From contig CANQBC010000015.1 of the NCBI GenBank assembly GCA_947589225.1, forward strand, positions 1 to 53,081: a stretch of 53,081 nt of DNA, in the 5' to 3' direction. This document shows, in pieces, positions 2,868-51,152 of the stretch; positions within the stretch are counted from its first letter, which is position 1, and every line of letters starts with the position of its first letter. The position numbers and the translations under genes are program-made. The notes beneath the pieces were generated by a model. The model searched no databases, was not told where the DNA came from, and saw only the letters and a program-made list of their open reading frames with translations. This DNA is from an uncultured Oscillospiraceae bacterium. GTDB lineage: Bacteria > Bacillota > Clostridia > Oscillospirales > Oscillospiraceae.

Positions 2868-2976
2868 TGTCAAAAAACTCAAATTGAGGTTTTTCCCGGC
2901 GGCACGCACGTCGGGAAAAAATCCTTTTGTTTTGCGGAGTGTGCGGTCTGGGGGACCCCGGCGGGCCGCAAATTTG
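2868..2976 (+). repeat. Dispersed structured repeat, copy A (right part missing)
   Basis: Starts with the block TGTCAAAAAACTCAAATTG, shared with copy C. Then comes the H1 hairpin, with arms TTTTTCCCG and CGGGAAAAA around a loop like GCGGCACGCACGT. A CCTTTTGT...GTGTG block follows, then the beginning of hairpin H2 (ACCCCGGCGGG), where similarity stops next to the radical SAM gene. Relative to copy C, the H1 stem gains one C and one matching G, so pairing is retained. The CTC...GAG piece followed by T-runs may also terminate the CBS gene. Confidence 0.7.
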
Positions 2977-2986
2977 ACCTGCCCGG

Positions 2987-3880
2987 CTATACCCCCGTCA
3001 GGTCAAATTCCGGGGTGTATTCCTCCCTGGCGGAGGAAAGCTCCTGATAAAACCCATCCTCGATGCCCCTCTCCTCCATGTACGCCACCGCCGCGCCGTA
3101 CTCCTCCTGGGTGAGACGGCGGTCGATCTCCGAAAACTCCGCCGCCCGGCCCATGGGCGTATACTGGCTCATGAGGGAGAAGAGGATCTGCCCCGGCGGG
3201 AAGGTGTCCGCTACCCAGTCGATGACCCCCCGCGTGTTCTCCGGGGCGTTGGGCAGAACAAGATGCCGGATGATAACGCCGGAGCGCAGCAGCCCGTCCT
3301 CCCCCAGTACGTACGGCCCCGTCTGGCGGACCATTTCAAGGATCGCCCGTTTCGCCGTCTCCGGGTAGCCGGGGGCGGAGGAATACCGCTCCGCCAGGGC
3401 GGGATCGGAGTACTTCATGTCGGGCAGGTAGATCTGAGCCTTCCCCTCCAGCGCCCGCAGGGCCGGGAGACTCTCGTACCCCGACGAGTTCCACACCACC
3501 GGCACCGGCAGGGGTTCCCGGAGGGACTCCAGCACCGCCGGGAGGAAGTGAGAGGCGGTGACGAGGCTGACGTTGTGAACGCCCTGCCCGATAAGCTCAA
3601 AATAGATCCCCCTCAGCCGCTCCGGCGTGACCCGCTTCCCCACGCCCCCGGCGGAGATGGCCGCGTTCTGGCAGTAGACGCATTTGAGATTGCACCCGGT
3701 AAAAAAGACCGTCCCGCTGCCCCGCGTCCCCGATATGGGCGGCTCCTCCCACAGATGGGGCGTGGCGCGGGCCACGCGGGCGTCCGACCCCTCCCCGCAA
3801 AAGCCGCCGCCCTCCTGGGGCCGGCGGAGCGCGCCGCATTTTCTGGGACACAGGCTGCAATAAAATGGCACAATATCCAT
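2987..3880 (-). CDS. Radical SAM protein, PflA-like (COG1313 family)
   Basis: About 297 aa. It has the radical SAM iron-sulfur motif CNLKCVYC (Cys63, 67, 70), which binds the 4Fe-4S cluster that cleaves S-adenosylmethionine. Four N-terminal cysteines (8, 11, 15, 28) could hold a second metal site. It resembles the uncharacterised PflX/AmmeMemoRadiSam-related group close to pyruvate formate-lyase activases; the substrate is unknown. The start is uncertain: the ATG at 3880 has little spacing to a ribosome-binding site, a TTG lies at 3889, and a GTG a few codons in is preceded by GGGAG at a good distance. It is divergent from the hydroxyacid dehydrogenase, with a short shared promoter region. 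Confidence 0.85.
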   Translation of the reverse strand: MDIVPFYCSLCPRKCGALRRPQEGGGFCGEGSDARVARATPHLWEEPPISGTRGSGTVFFTGCNLKCVYCQNAAISAGGVGKRVTPERLRGIYFELIGQGVHNVSLVTASHFLPAVLESLREPLPVPVVWNSSGYESLPALRALEGKAQIYLPDMKYSDPALAERYSSAPGYPETAKRAILEMVRQTGPYVLGEDGLLRSGVIIRHLVLPNAPENTRGVIDWVADTFPPGQILFSLMSQYTPMGRAAEFSEIDRRLTQEEYGAAVAYMEERGIEDGFYQELSSAREEYTPEFDLTGV

Positions 3881-3889
3881 CTCCCGCAA

Positions 3890-3917
3890 TTGACTTTTTC
3901 TTCATAAAGACTATAAT
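3890..3917 (+). promoter_or_regulatory. Sigma-A promoter of the hydroxyacid dehydrogenase
   Basis: TTGACT (3890-3895), 16-bp spacer, TATAAT (3912-3917). Transcription would begin about 30 bp before the ATG at 3953. Confidence 0.75.
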
Positions 3918-3952
3918 AAGGTTTTGAGAAAAAACTGTCAAGGAGGTTTGAC

Positions 3953-4921
3953 ATGAAGATCGTCGTTCTTGACGCCCACACGGAGAACCCCGGAGACCTG
4001 AGCTGGTCCGGCTTTGAGCAGCTGGGGGAGCTCACTATCTATGACCGCACGCCGAAATTTGACGACCGGGAGATCATCCGCCGCGTGGGCGACGCGGACA
4101 TGGTCATCACCAACAAGACCCCCGTTCGGGCCGCCGTTCTGGACGCCTGCCCCACGGTGAAGTACGTGGGCCTTCTCTCCACGGGCATCGACGTGTGCGA
4201 CTGCGCCTACGCCGCCCAAAAGGGGATCCCGGTGAGCAACATCCCGGCCTACTCCACCATGGCCGTGGCGCAGCACGCCATCGCCCTCCTGCTGGAGATC
4301 TGCTCCAAGGTGGGCGTCCACTCCCGGCTGGTTCACCAGGGCGACTGGCAGCGGTGCGAGGACTTTTGCTTCTGGGAGGCCCCGCTTATGGAGCTTTCGG
4401 GCCTGACCTTCGGCGTGGTGGGCTTCGGGCAGATCGGCCGCGCCGCGGGGCGCATCGCCAAAGCCCTGGGGATGCGCGTGCTGGCCGCCGGGTCCCGCCC
4501 CTGCCTGGAGGGGGAGACCATCGGTACATACACGGACCTGGACACCCTTCTACGGGAGTCGGACGTGGTCTCCCTCCACTGCCCCCTGAAGGACGAGACG
4601 CGCCGGCTCATCAACGCCGAGACCATCGCCCGGATGCGCGACGGCGCGATCCTCATCAACACGGGCCGGGGCGGGCTGGTGGACGAGGAGGCCCTGGCGC
4701 AGGCCCTCAAGTCCGGCAAGCTCTACGCCGCCGGGGTGGACGTGGTGTCCGTGGAGCCGATCCTGCCGGACAACCCGCTTCTGGGGTGCGAAAACTGCTT
4801 CATCACCCCCCACGTGGCCTGGACGCCCAAGACCTGCCGCCAGCGCGTCATGGACATCGCCGTCAGCAACGCCCGCGCCTTCCTGGCGGGCCGCCCGGAG
4901 AACGTGGTCAACGGGATTTGA
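3953..4921 (+). CDS. D-isomer 2-hydroxyacid dehydrogenase (glycerate dehydrogenase-like)
   Basis: NAD-dependent reduction of a 2-keto acid to the D-2-hydroxy acid. The 322-aa length suits the family. Seen: Rossmann motif GFGQIG near residue 157, and the catalytic triad Arg (NTGRGG, about 239), Glu (VSVEP, about 268) and His (PHVAW, about 287). The residues around the His-Trp pair and the DVVSVEP block are closest to HprA/glycerate dehydrogenase-like enzymes, but substrate cannot be read from sequence alone. AAGGAGG precedes the ATG with good spacing. Monocistronic. Confidence 0.88.
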   Translation: MKIVVLDAHTENPGDLSWSGFEQLGELTIYDRTPKFDDREIIRRVGDADMVITNKTPVRAAVLDACPTVKYVGLLSTGIDVCDCAYAAQKGIPVSNIPAYSTMAVAQHAIALLLEICSKVGVHSRLVHQGDWQRCEDFCFWEAPLMELSGLTFGVVGFGQIGRAAGRIAKALGMRVLAAGSRPCLEGETIGTYTDLDTLLRESDVVSLHCPLKDETRRLINAETIARMRDGAILINTGRGGLVDEEALAQALKSGKLYAAGVDVVSVEPILPDNPLLGCENCFITPHVAWTPKTCRQRVMDIAVSNARAFLAGRPENVVNGI

Positions 4922-5012
4922 CCCCGCAGAAAATTTCTTTCAAAAAATTTTCCTTTCCGCGCAATAAAATCCGCGTCTTGCGCATTACTTCATTGACAGG
5001 AGTTGAAAGACA

Positions 5013-5567
5013 ATGGAATCGGAGGAGATCATCGCCTCACCCGCTCCCGCGGCCGAACTCGAGCGGCTGCTGAAGGAGACGGCGGGGGGCGGGATGGACG
5101 CCCTGGCGGAGCTTTACAGGCGGACACGCGGCGCAGTCTACGCGCTGGCGCTCTCCATGACGGGGGACGCCTACATGGCCGAGGAACTCTGCCACGACGC
5201 CTACCTTCGCATCTGGGACTACGCGGGGAGCTACCGGGCAAAGGGGTCGCCCATGGCCTGGATCCTCGCCGTCACCCGGAACCTGTGCCTCATGGAGCTA
5301 CGCAAAGCCAAACGGACCGCGCACCTCACGGACGAGGAGTGGAACGCCATCCCCGCGGACACGGACGTGTCCGCCGAGGATCGGGCGGCCCTCCAGACGG
5401 CCCTCTCCCGGCTCAACGCCGGGGAGCGGCAGATCGTCCTCCTGCACGCCTCCTCCGGGCTTCGCCACCGGGAGATCGCAAAGCTCCTGGGCCTCCCTCT
5501 GGGGACCGTCCTGTCAAAATACCGCCGCGCGATGACCAAATTGCGTGAGACTATGGAAGGAGAGTGA
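5013..5567 (+). CDS. ECF-type RNA polymerase sigma factor
   Basis: A 184-aa sigma-70-family protein with only region 2 (about residues 30-95, with the helix ...AEELCHDAYLRIW) and region 4 (about 125-178, ending in the recognition helix ...LPLGTVLSKYRRA). It directs RNA polymerase to a dedicated promoter set. Its stop overlaps the next gene, an RsgI-like membrane protein expected to hold it inactive until a signal arrives. GGAG lies a few bases before the ATG. The 91-bp upstream gap contains an inverted repeat (GCGCAA...TTGCGC, about 4959-4984) that might be part of an autoregulated promoter; this is a guess. Confidence 0.9.
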   Translation: MESEEIIASPAPAAELERLLKETAGGGMDALAELYRRTRGAVYALALSMTGDAYMAEELCHDAYLRIWDYAGSYRAKGSPMAWILAVTRNLCLMELRKAKRTAHLTDEEWNAIPADTDVSAEDRAALQTALSRLNAGERQIVLLHASSGLRHREIAKLLGLPLGTVLSKYRRAMTKLRETMEGE

Positions 5568-5572
5568 GCCGC

Positions 5573-7315
5573 GTGACAGACAGGGACATCGAGCAGAGAC
5601 TGAGATCGGCCATTGACAACACGGCCCCCATGGGCCTGGACAGGCTCCTCTCCGACGTGGACATTCGGAAAGGAGAAAAGACCATGACAAACGAAAAAAG
5701 AACGCGCCGTTGGATCGGCCTTGCGGCCGCCTGCCTCGCCCTCGTCCTGCTGGCGGGCTTCGGCGGATTTTACTACGGACATAACTACACCGTGGCCACC
5801 ACGGTCTCCCTGGACGTGAACCCCAGCATCCAGATGGAGGTCAGCCGCGCGGAGAAGGTCATCTCCTGCGCGGGCCTCAACGACGAGGGCCGGGAGATCC
5901 TCGCCTCCATGAACGGCGGGGCCGATTTGAAGGGGGCCAAGCTCAACGTGGCTGTCAACGCCGTGGTGGGGGCCATCGTCAACGCCGGGTATCTGGACAG
6001 CCTCAGCTCCGCCATCCTCATCTCCGTGGAGGACAACGACCTTGCCCGGGGCGAGCGCCTTCAGGCCCAGCTTGTGGCCGAGGTGGACGGCATCCTCCAG
6101 ACCGCCGCCAACTCCGCCGGGGTCCTCAGCCAGTACATGACCGCCGACAAGGACCTCCAGGCCCAGGCCCAGCGCAGCAGCATCTCCACCGGCAAGGCCG
6201 CCCTGGTCAACCAGGTCATCGCCCTGAACCCCTCCCTGGATTTTACCAAGCTGGCCGAGCTCTCCGTTGAGGAGCTGCGGGACCTCATCCGCATCGGCGC
6301 GCCCGCCATGCCCATCGGGAAGGACGCCGCCGCCTGCGCCGCCGAGGAGTACGCCGGCGTCAATATTCTCGACTCCTATCTTGCCCAGTACACCGAGGTG
6401 GACCCGGAGCTGGACGACCTCACGCCCCACTATGACGTGGAGCTTAACTACAACGGCCGCGAGTACGACTATGAGATCGATGCCTTTACCGGCGAGGTCC
6501 TGCGGGGACTGAGCCGGATCGTAGGGGATAACCCCGGCGAACCCCTCCCCGAAGGGCCGGCCCTCACCGCCGACGAGGCCTTCAACGCCGCCGCCGCGTA
6601 TTTCGCGGCAAATCACCCGGAGCTTACGGGCAATTTCCTGAACATCAAGACGGAATACGACCGGGACGACGGTCACTACGACGTGGAGTTCTGGTGCTCC
6701 GGCTGCGAGTTCGACTACGACGTGGACGGCCAGACCGGCGCGGTCCTCCGGGAGGAGACGGACTACCTCTGCACGCTCCCCACCGTTCCCGATACCCCCG
6801 CCCCGGAAACCACCCCCACCACGCTCACCACTCCCTCCACCCCCGCCCAGACCGACATCGGGGCGGACGCGGCCAAGGCCGCGGCCCTGGCCCGCGCCGG
6901 CCTTGCCGATGATTCCTCCGTCACCTGGCTTAAATGCCAGCGGGAGTACGACGACGGAAGGCTGGAGTACGAGATCGAGTTCTATGCCGGTACCACCGAA
7001 TACGATGTCACCGTCCTGGCCGCCGACGGTACCGTCCTCAAATATGAGACGGAGAGGGCCAAATACAGCTCCGGCGGCGGAAACGCCGGCAGCGGGCAGT
7101 CCGGCGACGTGGGCGCGGACGCGGCCAAGGCCGCAGCCCTGGCCCACGCGGGCCTCACCGAGAGCCAGGTCACGCGCCTTAAATGCGAGCGCGACTACGA
7201 CGACGGCCGGATCGAGTACGAGGTCTCCTTCAAGTATAACGGCTATGAGTACGAGTATAAGCTGGACGCCGCCACCGGCTCCATCCTGGAGCACGAGCGC
7301 GACTGGGACGACTAA
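5573..7315 (+). CDS. RsgI-like transmembrane anti-sigma factor with PepSY-type repeats
   Basis: About 580 aa. A roughly 45-residue cytoplasmic tail presumably binds the neighbouring sigma factor. One membrane helix follows (about residues 46-68), then an RsgI-like extracellular middle domain beginning SLDVNPSIQMEV. The Asn-Pro in this motif is the autocleavage site known for RsgI proteins. The rest contains four PepSY-like units (about 250-310, 320-385, 430-490, 505-580) with recurring Y(D/E)VE...Y(D/E)Y and TG.VL patterns, and a Pro/Thr-rich linker near 400-425. A GTG at 5564 overlaps the sigma stop, but the GTG at 5573 is better spaced from GGAG. The canonical RsgI N-terminal domain is not obvious. 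Confidence 0.82.
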   Translation: MTDRDIEQRLRSAIDNTAPMGLDRLLSDVDIRKGEKTMTNEKRTRRWIGLAAACLALVLLAGFGGFYYGHNYTVATTVSLDVNPSIQMEVSRAEKVISCAGLNDEGREILASMNGGADLKGAKLNVAVNAVVGAIVNAGYLDSLSSAILISVEDNDLARGERLQAQLVAEVDGILQTAANSAGVLSQYMTADKDLQAQAQRSSISTGKAALVNQVIALNPSLDFTKLAELSVEELRDLIRIGAPAMPIGKDAAACAAEEYAGVNILDSYLAQYTEVDPELDDLTPHYDVELNYNGREYDYEIDAFTGEVLRGLSRIVGDNPGEPLPEGPALTADEAFNAAAAYFAANHPELTGNFLNIKTEYDRDDGHYDVEFWCSGCEFDYDVDGQTGAVLREETDYLCTLPTVPDTPAPETTPTTLTTPSTPAQTDIGADAAKAAALARAGLADDSSVTWLKCQREYDDGRLEYEIEFYAGTTEYDVTVLAADGTVLKYETERAKYSSGGGNAGSGQSGDVGADAAKAAALAHAGLTESQVTRLKCERDYDDGRIEYEVSFKYNGYEYEYKLDAATGSILEHERDWDD

Positions 7316-7334
7316 AAAACATCTTTTGCCTATT

Positions 7335-7360
7335 GGCCGCCGCCCCCAGGGGCGGCGGCC
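7335..7360 (+). terminator. Terminator after the sigma/anti-sigma operon
   Basis: GGCCGCCGCCCC and GGGCGGCGGCC form a very stable hairpin with a minimal loop, followed by TTTGCTG (a weak T-run). Confidence 0.75.
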
Positions 7361-7419
7361 TTTGCTGTCGAAAAAAACCTGAACGGAAGAGCGGATCGGA
7401 TGAAATCTGCCTTCGCCTC

Positions 7420-7448
7420 TTGCAATTGGCCCCGGCCCGTAGTATAAT
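7420..7448 (+). promoter_or_regulatory. Sigma-A promoter of the SCP2-like/aminotransferase operon
   Basis: TTGCAA (7420-7425), 17-bp spacer, TATAAT (7443-7448), 37 bp before the ATG at 7486. Confidence 0.82.
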
Positions 7449-7485
7449 ACCCATATCTATGCGAATTTGCCAAGGAGGCGGTTTT

Positions 7486-8238
7486 ATGGACGAGAGGACC
7501 CTGGCCTTTATCAATCTCCACGCGGTCCTGGGCGGGCTTTCCAAGCTTTGCGAGCTGGACGGAGAATGTAAAAAGCTCATCGAGGGCAAGGACATCGCCA
7601 TCGGCATCACCGTCAAGGGCGGGCCGGAGGCGACGATCCGCTTCTCCGGCGGGGCCTGTACGGTGACGCCCGGCGTGGACAAGTGCGACATCAAGCTTCC
7701 CTTTTCCTCCTGCAAAAAGTTCAACGGTCTCATCGACGGGACGGTGACGCCCATCCCCTCCAAGGGGTTCACCAAGATCGGCTTTTTGCTCCACGAGTTT
7801 ACGAAGCTGACGGACAAGCTCACGGCGTATCTCCGCCCGGCGGAGGGCGCGCTGGACGACCCGGAGTTCTTCCGCGTCAGCACCACCGTCATGTTCCACC
7901 TCATTCTGGACGCCATCGCCCAGATCGGCAACGAAGACAAGGTGGGCAGGGCCTCTGCCTCCTACATCGTCAACGGGGACATCCGCATGGGCATCGAGGG
8001 CGGTCCGGAGGGGTTCATCCACGCCCGCGACCACGTCCTCACCGCCGTCCACACCCCCTGCGAGCACCCCACAAGCTACATGATCTTCGCCTCCATGCGG
8101 GACGCCCGCGACCTCTTCGATGGCAAGGTCAACGGCGTGGTGTGCGTCGGGACCGGCAAGGTGCGCATGGGCGGCATGATCTCCATGGTGGACAATGTGA
8201 ACAGGATCCTGGACCGCGTGTCCATGTATCTGGCGTGA
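7486..8238 (+). CDS. Conserved protein with an SCP2-like C-terminal region
   Basis: A 250-aa soluble protein with no signal peptide or membrane segment. The last 50 residues (DARDLFDGKVNGVV...GKVRMGGMISM...) resemble the lipid-binding SCP2 (sterol carrier) fold, in which a DA..L..GK element is followed by GK(V/I)...G. The N-terminal 100 residues contain a similar pattern (IAIGITVKGGPEATIRFSGG), so two SCP2-like halves are possible. It is nine bases upstream of a class III aminotransferase and shares its promoter, so it may bind the hydrophobic substrate or product of that enzyme; this is inference. CAAGGAGG precedes the ATG, which rules out longer upstream starts. Confidence 0.6.
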   Translation: MDERTLAFINLHAVLGGLSKLCELDGECKKLIEGKDIAIGITVKGGPEATIRFSGGACTVTPGVDKCDIKLPFSSCKKFNGLIDGTVTPIPSKGFTKIGFLLHEFTKLTDKLTAYLRPAEGALDDPEFFRVSTTVMFHLILDAIAQIGNEDKVGRASASYIVNGDIRMGIEGGPEGFIHARDHVLTAVHTPCEHPTSYMIFASMRDARDLFDGKVNGVVCVGTGKVRMGGMISMVDNVNRILDRVSMYLA

Positions 8239-8247
8239 GGTGACAGT

Positions 8248-9498: not shown

Positions 9499-9511
9499 AA
9501 ACTGTCTCCCA

Positions 9512-9801
9512 ACGGCTCAGTTTAAATTTTTTCCCGGCGGTATGTACGTCGGAAAAAACCCTGTTGTCACGCAAGTGTGCCTTTTAGGGATCCCCGGCGG
9601 ACAAAGCCCGCTGGGGGGAGGAGGAGCGATGCTAGCGCCTGAGGGCGACCGAAGGAAGCCCGAAGCAAAGCGGCTTCAGCGACGACGAGGGTGCGCGCAG
9701 CGTGACAGCAGGAACCATCTTTCTGAATTTCGCGGAATTCAGAAAGATGGTTCCGCACGTTACCCCCCTTGGCAGGAAAATGCCGTCAGGCATTTTCCGC
9801 C
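9512..9801 (+). repeat. Dispersed structured repeat, copy B (most complete plus-strand copy)
   Basis: Fills the 319-bp gap before pyrC. Four hairpins lie in order. H1 (9527-9558) has T6CC and GGA6 arms. H2 has C4GGCGG (9592-9600) pairing with CCGCTG4 (9608-9616). H3 is a perfect 19-bp stem, GGAACCATCTTTCTGAATT (9711-9729) with 9736-9754. H4 has GGAAAATGCC (9775-9784) with GGCATTTTCC (9789-9798). Between H2 and H3 runs the conserved block from GAGGAGGAGCGATG to GCGACGACGAGG, also present in copies C and D in whole or part. H4 sits 13 bases before the pyrC ribosome-binding site and could influence pyr expression. Confidence 0.8.
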
Positions 9802-9817
9802 AGCTTTTGGAGGATTT

Positions 9818-16180: not shown

Positions 16181-16181
16181 G

Positions 16182-25270: not shown

Positions 25271-25662
25271 GTCGAAAAAGGCCTTTGGCCTTTTCCGACA
25301 AAGGGGAACGTGCGGGAAACTCCGCGTGAATTTTGCGAAATTCACGCGGAATTTCCCTGCTGTCGCCCTGCGTGCCTCGTCGTCGCGGATGCCGCTTAAC
25401 CTCGCCTCATCGTCCTCACACGAGCCGCTTTGCTTCGGGCTCCCTTCGGTCGCCCTCAGACGCTGGCTCGGTTCGTCCTCTCCCCAACAGGCTTTGCCTG
25501 TCGGGGGCCCCTTATCGAGGCTCAGGCGCTATCATCGCTCCTCCTCTCCCCACGCAATCTCCGATTGCGCGGGGACTCCATCGCGACACACTTGGGCGAC
25601 AAAAGGTATTTTTTCCGACGTACATACCGCCGGAAAGAATACTCAATTTGAGTTTTTTGACA
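25271..25662 (-). repeat. Dispersed structured repeat, copy C (longest copy)
   Basis: Read on the minus strand, it starts TGTCAAAAAACTCAAATTG and runs as H1 (25638-25609), a CCTTTTGTC...GTGTG block, and H2 CCCCGCGCAATC/GATTGCGTGGGG (25574-25548). A second, diverged H2 unit, CCCCGACAGGC/GCCTGTTGGGG, follows at 25507-25482. Next come the GAAGCAAAGCGGCT and GCGACGACGAGG blocks, H3 (25357-25314) and H4 GTCGGAAAAGGCC/GGCCTTTTTCGAC (25299-25271). The H2 duplication suggests internal expansion. The region contains no gene. Confidence 0.8.
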
Positions 25663-40969: not shown

Positions 40970-41088
40970 CCTCGTCGTCGCGGATGCCGCTTAACCTCCG
41001 CCTGTGCGCAAGCGCAAAGGCTCAGGCGCTATCATCGCTCCTCCTCTCCCCACGCAATCTACGATTGCGCGGGGACCCCTTTTTTGAC
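40970..41088 (-). repeat. Dispersed structured repeat, copy D (H1, H3 and H4 lost)
   Basis: Read on the minus strand: TGTCAAAAAA joins directly to GGGGTCCCC, so H1 is deleted. Then come H2 CCCCGCGCAATC/GATTGCGTGGGG, GAGAGGAGGAGCGATGATAG and CGCCTGAG, a short hairpin CCTTTGCGC/GCGCACAGG, and GAGGTTAAGCGGCATCCGCG with ACGACGAGG. The last block is identical to copy C. The rest of the 356-bp gap (40,829-41,184) has only the hairpins described above and no gene. Confidence 0.78.
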
Positions 41089-41184: not shown

Positions 41185-42681
41185 TCAACCCTTCTCCATC
41201 CTTATTACCTTTGTGGCGATGCGCTCCGTGAACGCCCGGTCGTGCTCCACAAAGAGCATGGTGGGGCGATAGCGGGCCAGAAGCTCCTCAATCTGGATGC
41301 GGGAGATGACGTCCACGTAGTTGAGAGGCTCGTCCCAGATGTAGAGGTGCGCCCGCTCCGAGAGGCTGCGGGCCAGGAGCGCCTTCTTTTTCTGCCCCTG
41401 GGACCAGTCCTCCAGGGGCTTTTCAAACTGGATCCGCTCAAAGCCCAGCTTGCGAAGGATGGACTGAAAGACGGCGCGATCCAGGTCGAACCCGGCGGCG
41501 TAGTCCTCCAGCGAGCCGCGCAGGGCGGAAGCGTCCTGGCCGACGTAGGAGACGACGAGGTCCGAGACCTTTCGTATTTCCCCCGTGTGGGGGACGTCCT
41601 CCCCTAAAATCAGCCGGAGGAGGCTCGTTTTGCCGCAGCCGTTTGGCCCGGAGAGGGCGGCGCGGTCGCCGGGGGAGAGGTCGAAGGAGATATGGGCGCA
41701 GACGGGCCTGCCCCCGTAGGAGACGGAGACATCCCGGAGGGTGACCAGCTTCCCCGCCCGGTGGGCGAGGGGGACAAGCTTGATGTCCTCGTCACGCTCC
41801 AGGTTGTGAAGGAGCTTGGACTTCTCCTCCACCGCCCGCTCCCGGCGCTGGGCGATGGCGACGGCTCTGCGCTGCTGCTTGGCGGCTTTGGCGGCCTGCG
41901 CCGGCGCCCAGCCCTTTTTTGACTCGGCTTTGTCGGTATGGGAGACGTATTTGGCCCGTTCGGCCCTGTCAGACCACTGGGCGTGTTCCCGGGCCGCGTC
42001 GTTGAGCCGCGCGATCTCGCCTCGTAGCTTCTCGTTCTCGGAAAGCTCGTAGGCGTCCTGGCGCTTTTTGTTCTCCCACCAGGTGGAAAAGGAACCGCGT
42101 GTCACTTCGATATTCGCGCGGTTGATGCTCAGCGTGTGGTCGGTGCAGGCGTCCAGAAGCGCCCGGTCGTGGCTCACCAGGATGAAGCCGGACTTGCGGG
42201 CGAGGTAATCGCCCACCAGCGCGCGGGCGGCCATGTCCAGGTGGTTGGTGGGTTCGTCGATGAGGGGAAAGACGTCCTCGCGGGCGAAAAGCGCCGCCAG
42301 GGCGGCCCTGGTCTGCTCCCCGCCGGAGAGGGTGCGAAAGGGCCGGGAGAGCATCTCCCCGTCGATGCCCAGCTTGGCAAGCTCCCGCGTCAGCCGCCAC
42401 TCCTCGATCCCCGGAAGGGAGGCCGCAAGCGCGTCAAGCGTGGGGAGGGAGGGGTCCTCCACCCGGACGGGGAAATAGGCAAAGACGAGGCCGGGCGCGG
42501 AAATGGAGCCGGAATAGGGAAGCTCCCCCATGAGGCATCGGAGGAACGTGGTCTTGCCCCGCCCGTTGCGCCCGGTGAAGCCCAGCCGCCACGCCGAGTC
42601 CAGGCGGAAGGAGACACGTTCAAAGATGTTGTCGTGACTGCCCTCATAGGCAAATGAAAAATCTGTTACGTCGATAAGCAT
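41185..42681 (-). CDS. ABC-F ribosomal protection protein, Lsa-like
   Basis: A cytoplasmic tandem ATPase without membrane helices that frees ribosomes from bound antibiotics. The 498-aa length equals typical Lsa proteins. Seen: Walker A GRNGRGKTT and GPNGCGKTS, signatures LSGGEQTRA and WSQGQKKKA, Walker B FPLIDEPTNHLD and LYIWDEPLNYVD, and a charged linker rich in Lys/Arg/Ala (about 215-305). DEPLNYVDVISRIQIEELL closely resembles the Lsa/CplR group, which acts against lincosamides, streptogramin A and pleuromutilins; the actual spectrum is unknown. GGAGG precedes the ATG at 42681. Regulation is by an attenuator described separately. Confidence 0.88.
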   Translation of the reverse strand: MLIDVTDFSFAYEGSHDNIFERVSFRLDSAWRLGFTGRNGRGKTTFLRCLMGELPYSGSISAPGLVFAYFPVRVEDPSLPTLDALAASLPGIEEWRLTRELAKLGIDGEMLSRPFRTLSGGEQTRAALAALFAREDVFPLIDEPTNHLDMAARALVGDYLARKSGFILVSHDRALLDACTDHTLSINRANIEVTRGSFSTWWENKKRQDAYELSENEKLRGEIARLNDAAREHAQWSDRAERAKYVSHTDKAESKKGWAPAQAAKAAKQQRRAVAIAQRRERAVEEKSKLLHNLERDEDIKLVPLAHRAGKLVTLRDVSVSYGGRPVCAHISFDLSPGDRAALSGPNGCGKTSLLRLILGEDVPHTGEIRKVSDLVVSYVGQDASALRGSLEDYAAGFDLDRAVFQSILRKLGFERIQFEKPLEDWSQGQKKKALLARSLSERAHLYIWDEPLNYVDVISRIQIEELLARYRPTMLFVEHDRAFTERIATKVIRMEKG

Positions 42682-42752
42682 AATAACGCCTCCAATCAAA
42701 AAATGAAAATGAGCCGCGGGAAAGGATCCCACAGCTCATAAAAGGCGTTATT
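42682..42752 (-). promoter_or_regulatory. Attenuator terminator and RBS-pairing arms before the ABC-F gene
   Basis: In the mRNA, GAGCTGTGGGA and TCCCGCGGCTC (42737-42711) form an 11-bp stem with a short loop and are followed by ATTTTCATTTTTT, a Rho-independent terminator inside the leader. AATAACGCC (42752-42744) is exactly complementary to GGCGTTATT (42690-42682), which borders the ABC-F ribosome-binding site. The terminator lies between these arms. Read-through would be needed for expression. Confidence 0.82.
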
Positions 42753-42913: not shown

Positions 42914-42918
42914 GGGGG

Positions 42919-42947: not shown

Positions 42948-42955
42948 TATTAAAA

Positions 42956-43078
42956 CGGCAATTAAATTTTGCCGATTTAATAAAAGATTAAAACGCCGTT
43001 TTGTTCGCCGCTGTGCGGCGGCCGACAAATATAGGCGATATGACTCCCACAATCATTTGATCGCCGGAGTCATATCGC
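42956..43078 (+). promoter_or_regulatory. Structured leader of the NYN-LOTUS gene
   Basis: Three hairpins: CGGCAA/TTGCCG (about 42956-42974); a CCGC/GCGG stem (about 43010-43022); and a perfect 13-bp stem, GCGATATGACTCC (43035-43047) with GGAGTCATATCGC (43066-43078), around an 18-base loop. No known riboswitch class is recognised. No open reading frame is supported here. Confidence 0.55.
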
Positions 43079-43116
43079 GGCTTATCATGATCCTGATCTA
43101 CAAAGGAGGGAACAGC

Positions 43117-43896: not shown

Positions 43897-43907
43897 TACA
43901 GGCCCTT

Positions 43908-44756: not shown

Positions 44757-44834
44757 CTTATGTGAATTTTAAATGAATAGTTTTTCCCGTCCCGCATAAG
44801 ATGATATGTATATCGTTTTGTGGGAGGGAGATTT

Positions 44835-44924
44835 ATGAAGGATAAAAACGAAAGACCCGCGCCGAAGCCGGATATTGACGATTTGATCTTCGGCGGCGAG
44901 GACGGGGGCCATTCGGAACGATAG
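44835..44924 (+). CDS. Possible 29-residue peptide upstream of prfB
   Basis: An ORF with GGGAGG ahead of its ATG encodes a charged, proline-rich peptide with a PDIDDLIFGGEDGG core. No membrane segment. It may be a small protein of the type often found next to housekeeping genes, or chance. It lies 39 bases before prfB and could be translationally linked to it. Codon use is like that of its neighbours. Confidence 0.45.
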   Translation: MKDKNERPAPKPDIDDLIFGGEDGGHSER

Positions 44925-44963
44925 AGGCGCGGCCCTTACATACTTAAGAAGGATTGAGTGAAC

Positions 44964-46073
44964 ATGATCGTTGAATACGAGGATTACAAGACGAAGATCG
45001 GGGCGCTGAAGCCCCAGCTGGAGACCATCCGCAGAGCCATGAAGCTGGACGAGGTCTCCGACGAGATCGGCAGGCTCCAGGCCGAGTCCGAGGCGGACGG
45101 GTTCTGGAACGACCAGAAGAACTCCCAAAAGGTGCTTCAAAGGCTCAAACAGCTGAAAAACAAGAGGGAGAGTTTCACAAAGCTGGAGGGCCGCTATGAC
45201 GATCTGGGGGCCCTTTGCGACATGGCCATCGAGGAGGACGACATCTCGCTTCTGCCGGAGCTTGAGGGGGAGTATACCTCCTTCGCCGCCGACTTGGAGA
45301 CGACGCGCCTTTCCACCATGCTCTCCGGCGAGTATGACGCCTCCAACGCCATTTTGAGCTTTCACGCCGGAGCCGGCGGGACGGAGGCCCAGGACTGGAC
45401 GGAGATGCTCTACCGCATGTACACCCGGTGGGCGGAGCGCCACGGATACAAATACACGATCCTCGACTACCTGGACGGCGAGGAGGCGGGCATCAAGTCC
45501 GCCACCATCAAAATAGACGGCGACAACGCATATGGATATCTCAAGAGCGAGAGCGGCATCCACCGGCTGGTGCGCGTCTCCCCCTTTGACGCCTCGGGCC
45601 GCCGCCACACCTCCTTCGCCGCCGTGGAGGTCATGCCGGAGATCACCGACGACAGCGACATCGAGATCCGCGAGGAGGACATCGAGATGCAGGTGTTCCG
45701 CTCCTCCGGCGCTGGAGGGCAGAAGGTCAACAAGACATCCTCCGCCGTGCGCCTCATCCACAAGCCCACGGGGATCGTGGTCTCCTGCCAGGTGGAGCGC
45801 AGCCAGTTTCAGAACAGGGACAGCTGCATGACCATGCTGAAGGCGCGCTTGGCCGAGATCAAGGAGCGCGAGCACCTGGAGAAAATCGAGGACATCAAGG
45901 GCGTGCAGATGAAGATCGAGTGGGGCAGCCAAATCCGCTCCTACGTATTCATGCCCTATACTCTTGCGAAGGATCACCGCACGGGCTTTGAAAACGCGAA
46001 TATCAACGCGGTCATGGACGGGGATCTGGACGGGTTCATCAACGCGTATCTGGCGATGAAGGCGGAGGCGTGA
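44964..46073 (+). CDS. prfB: Peptide chain release factor 2
   Basis: Ends translation at UGA and UAA. The 369-aa protein has the stop-codon-reading SPF tripeptide ([16 protein letters not shown]), the catalytic GGQ ([12 protein letters not shown]), and an N-terminal helical domain with SEADGFWND. In many bacteria prfB needs a +1 frameshift early in the gene; here the frame is continuous from the start, with no in-frame UGA, so that autoregulation is absent. ATG 44964 suits AAGGA better than GTG 44958. Confidence 0.96.
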
Positions 46074-46089
46074 CAGCAAAAAGAGAATT

Positions 46090-46115
46090 GCCCCGGCGGG
46101 ATCTTCTGCCGGGGC
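46090..46115 (+). terminator. prfB terminator
   Basis: GCCCCGGC and GCCGGGGC around a GGGATCTTCT loop, followed by GTTCTT. Confidence 0.85.
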
Positions 46116-46146
46116 GTTCTTAAATACGAAATACGGAGGGGATAAA

Positions 46147-47859
46147 ATGGAGCTTTCCGCGATCTGCCATTACGCGGACAAGAGATATTGCTTCGCGCTG
46201 GACAGGGACAGATTCCTCTTTCGGATACGTGTCAAACGGGGGGATATGGCGCGGGTCACCCTCCACTGCCAGGACAAGTATCTGCCTTTGAAGTTCAAAG
46301 ACACACGCCGGGCCATACGGATGGAGCTTGCCTGCCGGGATCGGGTCAGCGACTGGTTTGAGGCGGTGGCGGAGTTCCATGTGGTGTGTCTGCGGTACTG
46401 GTTCGAGCTCGAGGACATGGCGGGTGAGAAGGTATATTACGGGAATTACGAATTCCGCCGGACGCCCTTCAGCGACATTGAGCGGATGTTCGACTGCCCG
46501 CAGAACCTGCGGGAGGAGGAGAGGCTAACCGTTCCCGGGTGGGCGAAAAACAAGGTGGTGTATCAGGTGTTTCCGGCGAGCTTTGCGCCGACGGGGCCGT
46601 TGAAGCGCGGCTGGTACGCCGCGCCGGTGGACTCTCGAAAGGATCTGGGCGGTACGCTGCGCGGGGTGATAGACAGGCTGGATCACATCAGGGAGCTGGG
46701 AGCGGATGTGATATACATGACCCCGGTTTTCCGGGCCGCAACGGTACATAAGTATGACACCATAGATTACTATGAGGTGGATCCGGCGCTTGGAACAAAA
46801 GAGGATCTGAGAGAGCTCGTGGACAAGGCCCACGGGATGGGCCTCCGCGTGGTGTTGGACGCGGTTTTCAACCACTCCTCACGGGAGTTCTTCGCTTTCA
46901 GGGACATCATGGAAAATGGGGAGAGCTCGGGCTATCTCGACTGGTACTTCATCGAGGGCTTCCCGCTGAGAGCCGCCTGGGGGCAAAAGCCCAATTACAA
47001 GACCTTCAGTTACTTTGGAGGAATGCCGAAGCTCAATCTGAGGAACCCGGCTGTGGAGAGGTATTTCATCGACGTTGCCCTGTACTGGCTCCGGGAGACG
47101 GACATCGACGGCTGGCGGCTGGACGTGGCCGACGAGGTCGGACACCGGTTCTGGCGGAATTTCCGGGACGCTGTGAAGGCGGAAAAGCCCGACGCGCTGA
47201 TCGTGGGTGAGGAGTGGCATTTCGGCGGAGATTTCCTGGAGGGGGATCAGTGGGACAGCGTTATGAACTACCCCTTTTACAACGCCGTCATGGATCTGAC
47301 GGCGCGGGAGAGCATCACCGTAACGGAGTTTTTTGACGCTCTGGGGTTCCTGCGGGGGAACCTTCACACGCGGACATACCCGGTGCTTTGGAATCTCATA
47401 GGCTCCCACGACACCGTGCGGTTCATCCGCGAGGCGGGAGGAAATCGGGGCAAGCTGAAAATGGCGGCGGCGCTGCAAATGCTGCTGCCGGGGATGCCCA
47501 TGATCTACTACGGCGACGAGTACGCCATGGACGGCGGCCCCGGCGGCGACTGCCGAAGGGGGATGGTTTGGGACAAAGACAGACAGGACGGGGATATGTT
47601 TGACTGGTACAAGCGGCTCGCCGGTTTGCGCCACACCCATCCGTGCCTGACGGAGGGGAAGGTCACCGGCTTTGAAACCGACGATGAAACGGGTACGGCG
47701 GTGGTCACCCGCAAACTCGGCGGGGAAACGCTGACCGTTCTGCTGCACTGTAAGAGCGGAAGGGTCGAGCTTCCGAAGTTTGCCGGAAAGGCCGAGCTGA
47801 CGGCGGGAGAGACGTTTAAGGGCTTTCTAGGGCCGTGGGAGGCGGCGGTGGTGGGATGA
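46147..47859 (+). CDS. GH13 alpha-glycosidase, neopullulanase/cyclomaltodextrinase-like
   Basis: A 570-aa cytoplasmic enzyme (no signal peptide) that cleaves alpha-1,4-glucans or cyclodextrins. The N-terminal CBM34-like domain (residues 1-120) is followed by a TIM barrel: DAVFNH region I, GWRLDVADEV (nucleophile Asp), VGEEWH (acid/base Glu) and GSHDTVRF (transition-state Asp). The arrangement matches subfamily GH13_20. GGAGGG precedes the ATG. It seems to stand alone; the intracellular location suggests use of imported maltodextrins. Confidence 0.93.
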   Translation: MELSAICHYADKRYCFALDRDRFLFRIRVKRGDMARVTLHCQDKYLPLKFKDTRRAIRMELACRDRVSDWFEAVAEFHVVCLRYWFELEDMAGEKVYYGNYEFRRTPFSDIERMFDCPQNLREEERLTVPGWAKNKVVYQVFPASFAPTGPLKRGWYAAPVDSRKDLGGTLRGVIDRLDHIRELGADVIYMTPVFRAATVHKYDTIDYYEVDPALGTKEDLRELVDKAHGMGLRVVLDAVFNHSSREFFAFRDIMENGESSGYLDWYFIEGFPLRAAWGQKPNYKTFSYFGGMPKLNLRNPAVERYFIDVALYWLRETDIDGWRLDVADEVGHRFWRNFRDAVKAEKPDALIVGEEWHFGGDFLEGDQWDSVMNYPFYNAVMDLTARESITVTEFFDALGFLRGNLHTRTYPVLWNLIGSHDTVRFIREAGGNRGKLKMAAALQMLLPGMPMIYYGDEYAMDGGPGGDCRRGMVWDKDRQDGDMFDWYKRLAGLRHTHPCLTEGKVTGFETDDETGTAVVTRKLGGETLTVLLHCKSGRVELPKFAGKAELTAGETFKGFLGPWEAAVVG

Positions 47860-48030
47860 CCCCCCGCGTTCATATCCATCCGCTCGGACTTCGGCTCGGC
47901 GTCCCCGGCAAGCCCAGGGCCATGAGCGCCGGGAAAGGCAGTTAAAATCCCGCTTTTGCTATACCGGGTTTTTAGAAGTGAACGTATCTGAGGAGGGGAT
48001 CCGTCGGGGCTCCTCTCAGATTGAAACCGC

Positions 48031-48080
48031 ACCGGCGCCAGGAAAGGCAGCCCCAAAGGGCTGCCTTTCCTGGCGCCGGT
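48031..48080. repeat. Long perfect hairpin (23-bp stem)
   Basis: Left arm 48031-48053, loop CAAA, right arm 48058-48080, all bases paired; it starts ACCGGCGCC. A shorter similar sequence (GCGCCGGGAAAGGCAG) occurs at about 47927, and another imperfect stem, ATCTGAG/CTCAGAT, lies at 47986-48021. It may be a terminator or a mobile-element remnant. The 263-bp gap here (47,860-48,122) holds no gene. Confidence 0.7.
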
Positions 48081-48122
48081 TATTCATAAGGGATTTCGTA
48101 GAATATCAGAATTGAGAAATAT

Positions 48123-48320
48123 ATGGATAACGTAAACGGCGCCGATGTGCAAGCCCCGAAAAACCCGACGCAGCTCAAAGCAAATTTCGGACTTCTGAAA
48201 TTTATCCTTCTTTCAGCGTTGACCTTTGGAATTTACAGTATTTATTCATACTCGAAGGTGGGAGATACCCTCAATATCGTCGTGGGGAGGTATGATGGGA
48301 AAAAGACCATGAGCTTTTGA
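48123..48320 (+). pseudogene. Truncated small membrane protein fragment
   Basis: 65 aa with one hydrophobic segment (FILLSALTFGIYSIYSYSKV) resembling the first helix of DUF4234-type membrane proteins, ending abruptly at GRYDGKKTMSF. Members of this kind continue with further helices, so this is probably a 5' fragment cut by rearrangement. The ATG has no clear ribosome-binding site. Confidence 0.45.
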
Positions 48321-48493
48321 GCAGGGCTTATAGGATTTTAACCCGCGATTCTGGAATAAATATTCGTAATCACCCGGAATACTATGGACTAATCCGACAA
48401 GCCGGATCCGCTTTTCTTATTAAAATCTTCAATTTTTATCATCCTTTTTCGCCTCCTGCTGCGTTATACTATCAGAGACAGGGTGGTGAGCCA

Positions 48494-48967
48494 GTGGAGT
48501 ACACCGATTATGATTTGGTACGCGGAGTGAAAGCCGGGGACAAAAGTGCGCTGGATATTTTAGTTCGGCGCTGGTATCCGCGCATTTATGGATATATCTT
48601 CAAATTAATGGAACAAGAACAGGACGCCTATGATCTGACCCAGGATGTCTTTATCGCCATGATGCAGAATATTCCGAACTATCATCCATGGAAAAAGTTC
48701 GACAATTGGCTCTTTACCATCGCGCACAACAAGTGTATGGACTTCTTTCGGATGCAAAAAAGGACCATGTTGGCAGCTGAGAACCATCCAGATCAACAGG
48801 TATCGATTCCCCCCTTTGAGGAAACGGCGGCGGTTTCTTTTACAGTCCGGAGTGCGTTGGCGAAATTGCCCACCGCACAGCGGGAGGCCGTGATTCTGCA
48901 TTACTTTTATCAGCTCACCGCGAACGAAATTGCCGAGCGAACAAACACCCCGTTGAGACCTTTTTGA
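48494..48967 (+). pseudogene. ECF sigma factor truncated in region 4
   Basis: 157 aa. Region 2 (DAYDLTQDVFIAMMQNI, then NWLFTIAHNKCMDFFR) and the first half of region 4 (PTAQREAVILHYFYQLTANEIAERTNTPL) are normal. The recognition helix that should follow is replaced by RPF and a stop at the point where the next module begins, so DNA binding at -35 is probably lost. Start GTG 48494 after GGTGAG. The 170 bp before it contain a TATACT with no clear partner. Confidence 0.65.
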
Positions 48968-49026
48968 GTTTCATGCGACTAATAAGTGGAAGGGGTTAAT
49001 GCCACCCTTTCAGAAAGGAGAAAGTC

Positions 49027-49581
49027 ATGGATAACGGTGCAAGTAGCTACCGCCGTTTCCTTGATGGTGATGACAAAGGATTAGCTGAAATCGTTGAAAA
49101 CTATAAGGATGGTCTTATCCTTTATTTGAACGGTTATGTCAACAATGTTTTCATTGCCGAGGAATTGACGGAAGATACTTTTTTTCGGTTAATCATCAAG
49201 AAACCACGATATTTCGGAAAAAGTACATTTAAGTCTTGGCTGTATGCAATCGGGCGAAATGTGGCGATTGATTTTGTAAGGCATAATTCCAAGCAGCTTA
49301 ACACTCCTATTGAAGATATGGAGAACTATTTAAGCGAGGAACAGAGTCTTGAACAATCCTACATAAAGGAAGAAAGAAAAATCGCAGTTCATAAAGCGTT
49401 GTCTAAACTTCCCAACGATTACAGAACAGTCCTTTGGCTTGTGTTCTTTGAAGGATTTTCCAACAAAGAAGCGGCAATTGTCTTAAAGAAAAACGAACGT
49501 CAAGTAAGAAATCTCCTATATAGGGCAAAGCAGTCTTTGAAATCAAAACTTGAAGAAGAGGGGTTTGTTTATGAAGAATAG
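49027..49581 (+). CDS. Second ECF-type sigma factor (accessory, low GC)
   Basis: A 184-aa protein with region 2 (AEELTEDTFFRLI...SWLYAIGRNVAIDF) and region 4 (PNDYRTVLWLVFFEGFSNKEAAIVL...ERQVRNLLYRAKQSL). AGAAAGGAG precedes the ATG. Codon use is markedly AT-richer than in the core genes. It overlaps the next gene, a membrane protein, by 11 bases in a sigma/anti-sigma arrangement. The leader just upstream (about 48960-49010) has an AAGGG/CCCTTT stem. Confidence 0.88.
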   Translation: MDNGASSYRRFLDGDDKGLAEIVENYKDGLILYLNGYVNNVFIAEELTEDTFFRLIIKKPRYFGKSTFKSWLYAIGRNVAIDFVRHNSKQLNTPIEDMENYLSEEQSLEQSYIKEERKIAVHKALSKLPNDYRTVLWLVFFEGFSNKEAAIVLKKNERQVRNLLYRAKQSLKSKLEEEGFVYEE

Positions 49582-50656
49582 TAATGAAATGTTTAACAGC
49601 CTGTTGGAACGTAGGGATCGGTATATTGCCGGGCAGAGGAAAAAGAGAAAGGCAGTCATCCGCACAGCAACTCCTGTGTGCTGCCTGTGTCTTGCTGTGA
49701 TGCTTGGTGTTGGCATTTGGCGATCCGGTTTATTAGAGCAGCCTGATGTTCCCATTCAAGGAGATACGTCGGGTCAGATTGGCGGCTCCGTTGGCGGCAC
49801 ATCCGATACCCAGAGTCCTTCTTTCCCTGCCAAAGGAGATGAGCCGGGTCAGAATTCCGGTTCTGTAGGCGGTGCATCCGCTGCTCAGAGTCCTTCTTCG
49901 TCGGCAAAGGACGAATACGCGGTTTATACTGACTCTGTCAAGCTGCCGGAAAATACTTCGGACGTGGCAATGGACATGATTGGCTGCCTTGTATATAAGG
50001 GAAAAGTTTATACGCAATCGGTTTATGTCAATGGTATTGATTCTGCGATTGCCGAAAAATTAGTTGGCGAATATGTCGGAGAAGCAAAAGGTACATTGGA
50101 TGAATGGTCATCGCAGGAGGAATATGCAACAGAATTTGCTTCTACCTATTCTGGTTCTGTATATAAGGTCAACGGATACAGCGAGGATTTTCGCCTTTGC
50201 ATCTATGTGGATTTCGGTGACGAGCAAGTGCTGCAGTTCCTGGATAATTACGACGGGATCGGATTGAATACGGGAGCGGATCTTTTTGAGAAACGTCTCC
50301 ATGTCACAGGCAATGTGGAAAGTGTGACCTATCGCACACATTCCGATTGGAATAAGGGCGTATATTGGAATAAGCGCGTATCTAGCTATCAGGATTTAGT
50401 CAGCGTTACCGAGGAACAATTTGAACAATTTCTGACCGAGCTTTGCGAAAGTCCGTTTGAACGAATCGACTATGAGAACAATAAGGGCTTTTACAACGCT
50501 GAAACACAAGGTCACTTGTATCTGAACATGAAAGACGGAACTGTTATTGAGTTGAGATTGATTGAAGGCGGATATGTAGGCTGCCATGGCCTTGGTTGGA
50601 TCTTCGTAAAAATGCCAGGTGAACTTTTTGATTTAGTACTTGGAGCTTGTCAATAA
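49571..50656 (+). CDS. Membrane protein, probable anti-sigma factor
   Basis: 361 aa. A cytoplasmic, basic N terminus (about residues 1-32) is followed by one membrane helix (TPVCCLCLAVMLGVGIW), then an extracellular linker with two copies of a roughly 26-residue unit (GD..GQ.GGSVGG.S..QSPS...K). A globular domain of about 240 residues with no recognised fold ends the protein. Overlap with the sigma gene supports an anti-sigma role; the signal is unknown. The start is ATG 49571. Confidence 0.7.
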   Translation: MKNSNEMFNSLLERRDRYIAGQRKKRKAVIRTATPVCCLCLAVMLGVGIWRSGLLEQPDVPIQGDTSGQIGGSVGGTSDTQSPSFPAKGDEPGQNSGSVGGASAAQSPSSSAKDEYAVYTDSVKLPENTSDVAMDMIGCLVYKGKVYTQSVYVNGIDSAIAEKLVGEYVGEAKGTLDEWSSQEEYATEFASTYSGSVYKVNGYSEDFRLCIYVDFGDEQVLQFLDNYDGIGLNTGADLFEKRLHVTGNVESVTYRTHSDWNKGVYWNKRVSSYQDLVSVTEEQFEQFLTELCESPFERIDYENNKGFYNAETQGHLYLNMKDGTVIELRLIEGGYVGCHGLGWIFVKMPGELFDLVLGACQ

Positions 50657-50726
50657 ACAGGTATAGATATTTATGATTAGGTAATACCCAAATTCACATT
50701 TATCAGGGAATTGTAAACCGAATACA

Positions 50727-50763
50727 CAAAAGCGTCCAAGCGTAAAAACTTGGGCGCTTTTTT
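50727..50763 (+). terminator. Terminator of the second ECF module
   Basis: AAAAGCGTCCAAG and CTTGGGCGCTTTT with one G.U pair, followed by TTCTTCC. Confidence 0.88.
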
Positions 50764-50885
50764 CTTCCCCAAACGCTCCATTTTAGCGTATGGCTACAAC
50801 TGAATACGAATACATAGCCCTTGCTTTCAGAGGCGGTTACAGAGGAGCAAATGCCCCATAATCGCCCCGAGAATTAACGGAAAGC

Positions 50886-51026
50886 AAAGCCATTTATGTC
50901 CGCCGTGACTATGAGATAAGCATAGAGTTCAACGTCTCCTTTGAGGAGTTTCAACAGCTCTATCTTGAAAAGGAGACAGAGGAAAACAAAATGCCAGGAG
51001 CAGAAACACTCCTGACATTCGTATGA
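50886..51026 (+). pseudogene. Duplicated 3' end of a serine recombinase gene
   Basis: 141 bases almost identical (a handful of substitutions) to 52885-53025, encoding the same last 46 residues (AIYVRRDYEISIEFNVSFEE..). The rest of the gene is missing here. The 120 bases before it (50,764-50,885) hold no recognisable feature. Confidence 0.9.
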
Positions 51027-51152
51027 AATTGGGGCCCCCGCGCGATCCTGAATCGCGTGGGGAGAGGAGGAGCAAAGTCAGCGAGTGAGAAAGAAGGCAG
51101 ACGCCTTAAGCGACTGCCTTCTTTCGAGCCATCGCGACTTTAAGCGACGACG
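51027..51152 (+). repeat. Dispersed structured repeat, copy E, with an unoccupied counterpart at 53,025
   Basis: H2: C4GCGCGAT with ATCGCGTG4, then GAGAGGAGGAGC. A second hairpin, GAAAGAAGGCAG (51089-51100) with CTGCCTTCTTTC (51114-51125), sits where H3 lies in other copies. The end has TTTAAGCGACGACG. In the duplicate at 53,025/53,026 the recombinase stop joins directly to the tRNA sequence, so this 126-bp segment looks inserted. Confidence 0.75.

What the first reader, a model, noticed from the sequence alone, without database searches (positions are those of the whole stretch)
2868..51152. A family of dispersed, structured repeats with covarying hairpins
Five intergenic copies (2868-2976 +, 9512-9801 +, 25271-25662 -, 40970-41088 -, 51027-51152 +) share blocks such as GAGAGGAGGAGC, GCGATGATAGCGCCTGAG and GCGACGACGAGG, separated by up to four hairpins. 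The stems change from copy to copy but pairing stays: H2 is C4GCGCAATC/GATTGCGTG4 in C and D, C4GCGCGAT/ATCGCGTG4 in E, C4GGCGG/CCGCTG4 in B, and C4GACAGGC/GCCTGTTG4 in the extra unit of C. In each, the fifth pair is G opposite T in the same orientation, which is expected if an RNA form is selected. H3 and H4 show the same behaviour. I do not recognise this family; a noncoding RNA, a MITE, or a REP-like element are all possible.
Basis: partly seen in the sequence, partly recalled or inferred. Interest (0 to 1): 0.82.

Follow-up and report, generated by a model that had tools for sequence, protein, structure and literature searches.

The report
Structured repeat that colonises RNA genes
The scattered repeats in this stretch are two nested elements, a small transposon that lands on DNA hairpins and an unnamed self-folding RNA cassette often carried inside it; the cassette also sits inside the bacterium's own RNase P ribozyme, which gives a clear view of a repeat whose RNA shape is kept by selection.

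Summary
(1) MITE-1 is a ~190-bp palindromic element with IS1182-type ends. In 7 of 29 copies a direct repeat of a whole hairpin flanks it, beyond all 812 controls. In 7 of 10 transposase loci from congeners similar ends abut hairpin duplications. (2) Cassette X (~110 nt, GAGAGGAGGAGC...GCGACGACG) lacks terminal inverted repeats. It sits in the MITE-1 loop in either orientation, in other hairpin elements, in itself, and alone. X has 77 matches here, occurs in 50 of 295 genomes of the order, and no Rfam match was found. Its fold covaries: 96.4% of cells paired, 232 double changes against 60 shuffled. It holds three near-invariant tandem G.A motifs, and wobbles favour one strand. X forms helix P12 of RNase P RNA in 7 of 26 genus loci, this genome included, on the sense strand. 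It lies 1-4 nt from the tmRNA 5' end in 14 of 24 genomes and abuts some tRNA 3' ends. RNA-level selection is therefore supported; how solitary X moves is unresolved. Copy A has no X core.

The parts
2861..2955 (+). Copy A: truncated left half of MITE-1/Y (end, first hairpin, left arm of the long stem) followed by a short stretch like the start of X's first hairpin; no X core
   Evidence: read directly; match to copy C left end 2861-2930; Y model hit 2889-3011; no X model hit
9512..9801 (+). Copy B: MITE-1/Y with one X in its loop, sense orientation; left end degraded
   Evidence: Y model hit 9527-9763; X model hit 9584-9687
9584..9687 (+). Cassette X of copy B
   Evidence: X model 91.4 bits
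25271..25680 (-). Copy C: full MITE-1 unit carrying an X that itself carries a second X unit in place of its apical hairpin H3; four other copies at 95-97% identity in the genome
   Evidence: read against L093
25411..25514 (-). Inner X unit of copy C (GAGGACGAAC variant)
   Evidence: X model 94.1 bits
25533..25582 (-). 5' part (first hairpin and GAGAGGAGGAGC) of the outer X unit of copy C
   Evidence: X model 42.7 bits
40973..41082 (-). Copy D: solitary X
   Evidence: X model 107 bits
51028..51152 (+). Copy E: solitary X whose 3' end abuts a tRNA-like sequence on the other strand (ARAGORN calls no tRNA there)
   Evidence: X model 94.4 bits; sequence; ARAGORN

Best explanation
Two nested elements. 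MITE-1 is a non-autonomous transposon of the IS1182 family. That family's transposase, found at full length in congeners, recognises a palindrome in the target, probably extruded as a hairpin, and joins the element at its feet, so the whole hairpin (often terminator-like) is duplicated on both sides. X is a selfish, non-autonomous cassette that folds by itself into a rod: a GC-rich hairpin, then a helix of single G-C pairs alternating with tandem G.A pairs, a variable stem, and an apical hairpin. X spreads partly as cargo in the MITE-1 loop. It also settles alone, several times at hairpin tips or where a sister genome has a hairpin: the apical hairpin of X itself, P12 of RNase P RNA, loops of other hairpin elements, and beside tRNA and tmRNA genes. 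Because it is transcribed inside host RNAs at least in some places, copies are tolerated when they keep a self-contained fold, which yields the compensatory changes. Shown here: the composite structure, the ends, the hairpin duplications, the covariation, the strand asymmetry, the residence in RNase P RNA genes. Inferred: cruciform recognition, tolerance as the cause of selection, transcription, and how solitary X moves.
For: Hairpin duplication: 7 of 29 MITE-1 copies beyond all 812 control pairs. Similar ends and 22-31-bp hairpin duplications at 7 of the 10 fetched transposase loci above the NF033551 cut-off. X fold: 96.4% of cells paired, 19 of 30 pairs with double changes, 232 double-change cells against 59.9 shuffled and at most 55 slid. 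G.A columns 53-55 of 55 (GAGGAGGAGC/GCGACGACG helix) and 50-52 of 55 (third motif); G.U 92 against A.C 7. RNase P: 17 loci with X at P12, 17 of 17 on the sense strand, 22 of 30 pairs with double changes. Plain, X-bearing and otherwise extended P12 within single genera. X at tmRNA in 14 of 24 genomes. X within X replacing H3. MITE-2 with and without X.
Against: No enzyme and no consistent target duplication was found for solitary X. X is not enriched as a gene leader (6 against 9 mirrored of 64). Only 8 of 54 solitary sites outside MITE-1 and RNA genes have enclosing stems stronger than the control's 5th percentile, and MITE-1 (43) and RNA-gene sites (10) do not differ from their controls. Compensatory changes between the two duplicated target hairpins of L073 show that palindromes here can change in concert without any X function. 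At tRNA genes X lies on the strand opposite to the tRNA. Two of five measures are weaker for the tmRNA and P12 subsets: further pair types reach 46 of 500 and 263 of 500 shuffles. The own genome has only three weak IS1182 fragments.
Confidence: 0.62

Rival explanations
1. X is a functional RNA domain, for example a binding site for a host protein that recognises tandem G.A or kink-turn-like helices, recruited to stabilise or process host RNAs; its spread is secondary.
For: Near-invariant G.A helix across 55 diverged copies; kept position at tmRNA in 14 of 24 genomes and, by eye, in the tRNA-Arg spacer in 14 of 23 readable loci.
Against: Copy number runs from 0 to 86 within one genus; X is missing at tmRNA in 10 of 24 and at P12 in 19 of 26 genus loci; no bias towards gene leaders; both orientations inside MITE-1.
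Confidence: 0.2
2. The compensatory changes arise at the DNA level: replication template switching corrects one palindrome arm by the other, and no RNA is selected.
For: The two copies of the duplicated target hairpin in L073 differ by paired changes; the long hairpin of MITE-1 changes almost completely while staying paired.
Against: G.U far exceeds A.C on the modelled strand in X (92 to 7; 19 to 7 without the two dominant columns) and in MITE-1 (118 to 6; 33 to 6), whereas arm correction gives Watson-Crick pairs on both strands; the tandem G.A mismatches are conserved, not corrected; X is in the sense strand of RNase P RNA.
Confidence: 0.08
3. X never moves by itself: all solitary copies are relics of MITE-1 or other carriers whose ends have decayed, plus vertical inheritance.
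For: Window copy C and four 95-97% identical copies of the whole MITE-1+X unit show carriage; many X lie in carriers (43 of 107 classed as MITE-1).
Against: At P12, the tRNA-Arg spacer and tmRNA no carrier remnants were seen by eye; G048, G071 and G273 have X matches but do not appear among the genomes with a Y match (the search used strict filters).
Confidence: 0.1

Closest known systems
IS1182-family insertion sequences, in particular IS1272 of Staphylococcus (Wan et al. 2017, PMC5678879; passages and part 1 of 2 of the Discussion seen)
   Same: The target is recognised as an inverted repeat or stem-loop of unrelated sequence; the transposase family is the one found with matching ends in congeners.
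   Different: IS1272 replaces the stem-loop and leaves no duplication; here the whole hairpin is duplicated, which the authors drew as an alternative pathway (Fig. 13, pathway b). MITE-1 has no transposase gene.
BOX elements of Streptococcus (PMC3049150; passages seen)
   Same: Modular, interspersed, nested in one another, with a predicted RNA fold.
   Different: No sequence comparison with BOX was made; X is additionally part of RNase P RNA and lies beside tmRNA and tRNA genes.
STRR repeats in helix P12 of cyanobacterial RNase P RNA (recalled; only a mention in PMC2858038 was matched, not read)
   Same: A repeat found elsewhere in the genome enlarges P12.
   Different: STRR are short tandem repeats; X is a defined ~110-nt fold with compensatory changes.
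REP/RAYT palindromes and Rickettsia palindromic elements (recalled)
   Same: Dispersed elements with hairpins that settle in or near genes.
   Different: X is asymmetric with a multi-helix fold; association with a RAYT was not tested.

Membership tests
IS1182-family MITE (for MITE-1) | Terminal inverted repeats shared with a transposase-bearing element | tested here: met
   MITE-1 left end TCAGNNTGTCAAAAAACTC against CAGTYTGTCAAAAAAC-type ends at L220-L223 and L225; L218 and L219 have a GACAAA variant. The MITE-1 right end matches less well.
IS1182-family MITE (for MITE-1) | Target is a hairpin and is duplicated | tested here: met
   7 of 29 copies beyond all 812 control pairs; two more at or just above the 99th percentile; 7 of 10 transposase loci
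IS1182-family MITE (for MITE-1) | Active transposase in the same genome | tested here: not met
   Three weak fragments in the own genome, none over the cut-off; congeners have full-length genes. A MITE can outlive its transposase in one strain, and the assembly is in 72 contigs.
MITE (for X) | Terminal inverted repeats | tested here: not met
   5' end GGGGNCCCC and 3' end GCGACGACG show no inverted match (alignment A1; read by eye)
MITE (for X) | Target-site duplication | tested here: inconclusive
   6 of 107 copies above the control's 99th percentile, one (L166) above its maximum; none at the MITE-2 sites compared
Known Rfam family | Match at or above gathering score | tested here: not met
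   Window; permissive scans of nine loci with X or Y gave only matches below gathering score
Structured RNA | Compensatory changes above controls, on one strand | tested here: met
Structured RNA | Transcription | not testable with these tools
   No RNA-seq; inferred from sense-strand residence in the only RNase P RNA match of the own genome
BOX element | Modular composition with interchangeable internal units | tested here: met
   MITE-1 loops hold small hairpins, X forward, X inverted, or X in X
BOX element | boxA/boxB/boxC sequence similarity | not tested
   no BOX sequences were fetched

The most novel reading that the evidence does not exclude
X is a mobile RNA domain that moves between RNAs by structure-dependent replacement of hairpins, possibly through an RNA intermediate, and has repeatedly become the P12 domain of RNase P and the leader of tmRNA: a transposable piece of RNA architecture that an essential ribozyme accepts as a working part.
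Probability: 0.2. Interest if true: 0.92.

Novelty: new variant of a known kind. Interest (0 to 1): 0.72.

Why it matters
It supplies natural cases of whole-hairpin duplication by IS1182-type transposons, a pathway drawn as a possibility by Wan et al. 2017. It also adds an unnamed structured element, found in several families of the order, whose fold is under strand-specific selection and which is part of RNase P RNA in four genera (g1, g29, g10, g55). How repeats colonise essential RNA genes without killing the host becomes testable by comparing sister genomes with and without X at P12.

Tried and rejected
One family of five copies: rejected (copy A lacks the X core; D and E lack MITE-1). X as a 5'-leader regulator: not supported (6 sense starts against 9 mirrored among 64 solitary X). 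X on plasmids or phages: no match for copy D in either collection in 'distant' mode. General flank duplication around X: not seen (6 of 107 above the 99th percentile). Enclosing stems at all X sites: no, 8 of 54. Intact IS1182 transposase in the own genome: not found. Range of Y: the Y model matches 41 of 295 genomes, but of 20 distant loci printed the right-arm motif CGCACGT is in 0 and AAGTGTG in 7, and at least three loci on short contigs (L377, L378, L396) were cut at the wrong place by my script, so Y's range is uncertain. Pattern-based screening of tmRNA loci missed some X that the model found; I use the model's count. The literature searches on MITE and IS1182 terms gave mostly unrelated papers. 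R-scape and RNA-seq were not available.

Full report
What was checked. The window is contig C15 of an unnamed 2.41-Mb genome in 72 contigs. Copies E and C were searched against that genome: 43 and 99 matches, self-matches included. The match clusters were fetched and printed. Relatives with names are mostly uncultured Oscillospiraceae MAGs labelled 'Lapin'; 99 stretches hold the exact 20-mer CGTGGGGAGAGGAGGAGCGA (80 rows shown).

Anatomy. The repeats are a composite. MITE-1 (its interior is called Y) runs from a TCAGNNTGTCAAAAAACTC end through a hairpin CCGGCGGCATGTACGTCGG, a long stem (GTCGCCC...GGGCGAC and covarying versions such as GTTTTGC/GCAAAAC and GTCACGC/GCGTGAC), a near-perfect hairpin of changing sequence, and a terminator-like right end. 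The loop of the long stem holds a small hairpin, or X in the sense orientation (for example L093), or X inverted (L100, L074, L077, L106, L113), or X within X (window copy C and four copies at 95-97% identity). In copy C the second X unit stands where the simple X of L093 has its apical hairpin. X alone is copies D and E and many others. X also sits inside a second MITE: L079, L083 and L086 have it, L128 and L223 do not.

MITE-1 lands on hairpins. For 29 MITE-1 copies the left and right flanks were aligned and compared with 812 mismatched pairs. Seven of 29 exceed every control (scores 33-58, control maximum 25); each repeat is a hairpin of 19-37 bp flush with the element ends. Two more (L082, L093) lie at or just above the 99th percentile; 20 of 29 show no such repeat, among them window copies A, B and C. 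In L074 the target is the first hairpin of an X copy. The IS1182 transposase model (NF033551) finds three weak fragments in the own genome, none over the cut-off; 25 of 60 genomes, the own included, have matches and 10 of 60 exceed the cut-off. Of the 10 fetched loci above the cut-off, seven (L218, L219, L220, L221, L222, L223, L225) have CAGNYTGTC-type ends, with one base changed at one end of L218 and L219, abutting hairpin duplications of 22-31 bp; at L216, L217 and L224 the same alignment found none. Wan et al. 2017 (PMC5678879; passages, part 1 of 2 of the Discussion) found that IS1272 of this family replaces stem-loops, and drew duplication of the stem-loop as an alternative pathway.

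X is a structured RNA-like cassette. From 107 simple copies found by pattern, 55 diverse ones were aligned. RNAalifold gave 30 pairs, 19 with compensatory changes. Counts: 96.4% of cells paired (shuffled 80.1%), 232 double-change cells (shuffled 59.9; slid at most 55), covariation score 0.431 (shuffled 0.143). The blocks GAGGAGGAGC and GCGACGACG face each other as G-C pairs separated by tandem G.A pairs; the four G.A columns are 55, 55, 53 and 55 of 55, and a third tandem G.A has 52 and 50 of 55. G.U cells number 92 and A.C cells 7 (19 and 7 without the two columns where G.U dominates), so one strand is favoured. MITE-1, in 26 copies without X, shows the same: 97.3% paired, 32 of 50 pairs with double changes, G.U 118 against A.C 6 (33 against 6 without dominant columns). 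Paired changes between the two copies of one target hairpin (L073) warn that palindromes here can also change in concert.

Distribution. With the X covariance model, 32 of 34 genus genomes match, with 1-86 matches each (own genome 77; none in G006 and G020), and 50 of 295 genomes of the order (strict filters). A Y model matches 41 of 295, less surely. Rfam gave nothing for either. Copy D has no match in the plasmid or phage collections.

X in RNase P RNA. In five genomes of other genera X lies inside the RNase P RNA gene (RF00010). In genus g29, among 14 loci read, P12 is an ordinary hairpin in G330 and G344, a shorter one in G334, G333, G343 and G338, X in G248, G120, G339, G329 and G332, and an unrelated structure of about 100 nt in G174, G335 and G090. 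In genus g10 G101 has a plain P12, G066 and G129 one X, G042 and G084 two X in tandem. In the own genus 7 of 26 loci have X at P12, the window's own genome included. In all 17 X-bearing loci X is on the sense strand of the gene. In the 19 X sequences of these loci 22 of 30 pairs show double changes, now including the G-C pairs of the G.A helix; the measure 'further pair types' does not exceed shuffles there (263 of 500). G000 has a single RNase P RNA match, so the X-bearing ribozyme is presumably the working one.

X beside other RNAs. X ends 1-4 nt upstream of mature tmRNA in 14 of 24 genus genomes with a full tmRNA match, with covariation among those copies; G030 and G027 have MITE-1/Y there, as does G106 of another genus. 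Of 107 X copies, 8 abut a tRNA 3' end (gap -1 to 3), all from the opposite strand. In the tRNA-Arg spacer of the genus, by eye 14 of 23 readable loci have X or a variant and 9 do not; in L371 and L372 the same place holds an ordinary hairpin.

Limits. X is not enriched as a gene leader (6 against 9 mirrored of 64). Of 54 solitary sites outside MITE-1 and RNA genes 8 have enclosing stems stronger than the control's 5th percentile (about 3 expected); sites in MITE-1 and beside RNA genes do not differ from their controls. Flank repeats around X exceed the control's 99th percentile in 6 of 107 copies and its maximum in one, L166. No enzyme for solitary X was found. Transcription is inferred, not measured.

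Literature. Searches of the held library found no description of X: on RNase P, tmRNA, structured RNA and repeat terms; some searches concerned IS1182 and MITEs. PMC3049150, PMC2858038, PMC8172020 and PMC8040213 were seen in passages only. Novelty is therefore claimed only against those searches and Rfam 15.

Noticed in passing
L277, L279, L280 (P12 of RNase P RNA, genus g29): P12 is enlarged by a different structure of about 100 nt, unrelated in sequence to X, in G174, G335 and G090: P12 seems to accept more than one kind of insert.
   Followed up: no
window 41185-42732 (-): ABC-F protein passing the general ribosomal-protection model (427 bits, cut-off 380) but not the Lsa model (605 bits, cut-off 750); copy D lies just downstream of it.
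   Followed up: no
L079, L083, L086, L096, L109, L128, L223: A second MITE with ends like TATACTAATAYYNNATTAAA, with or without X inside; one IS1182 element (L222) is inserted in its hairpin.
   Followed up: partly
L167, L179, L183, L200, L208: A hairpin element GGGACGG(T)n...AACCGTCCC in MAG loci that carries X in its loop; unnamed here.
   Followed up: partly
L239 and L245 (genomes of two families): X between the same two genes in unrelated families, with a flanking reading frame ending LADVLGYD by my own reading; this may point to spread on a conjugative element.
   Followed up: no
window 51153-51230: A tRNA-like sequence beside copy E that ARAGORN does not call; possibly a decayed tRNA gene.
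   Followed up: no
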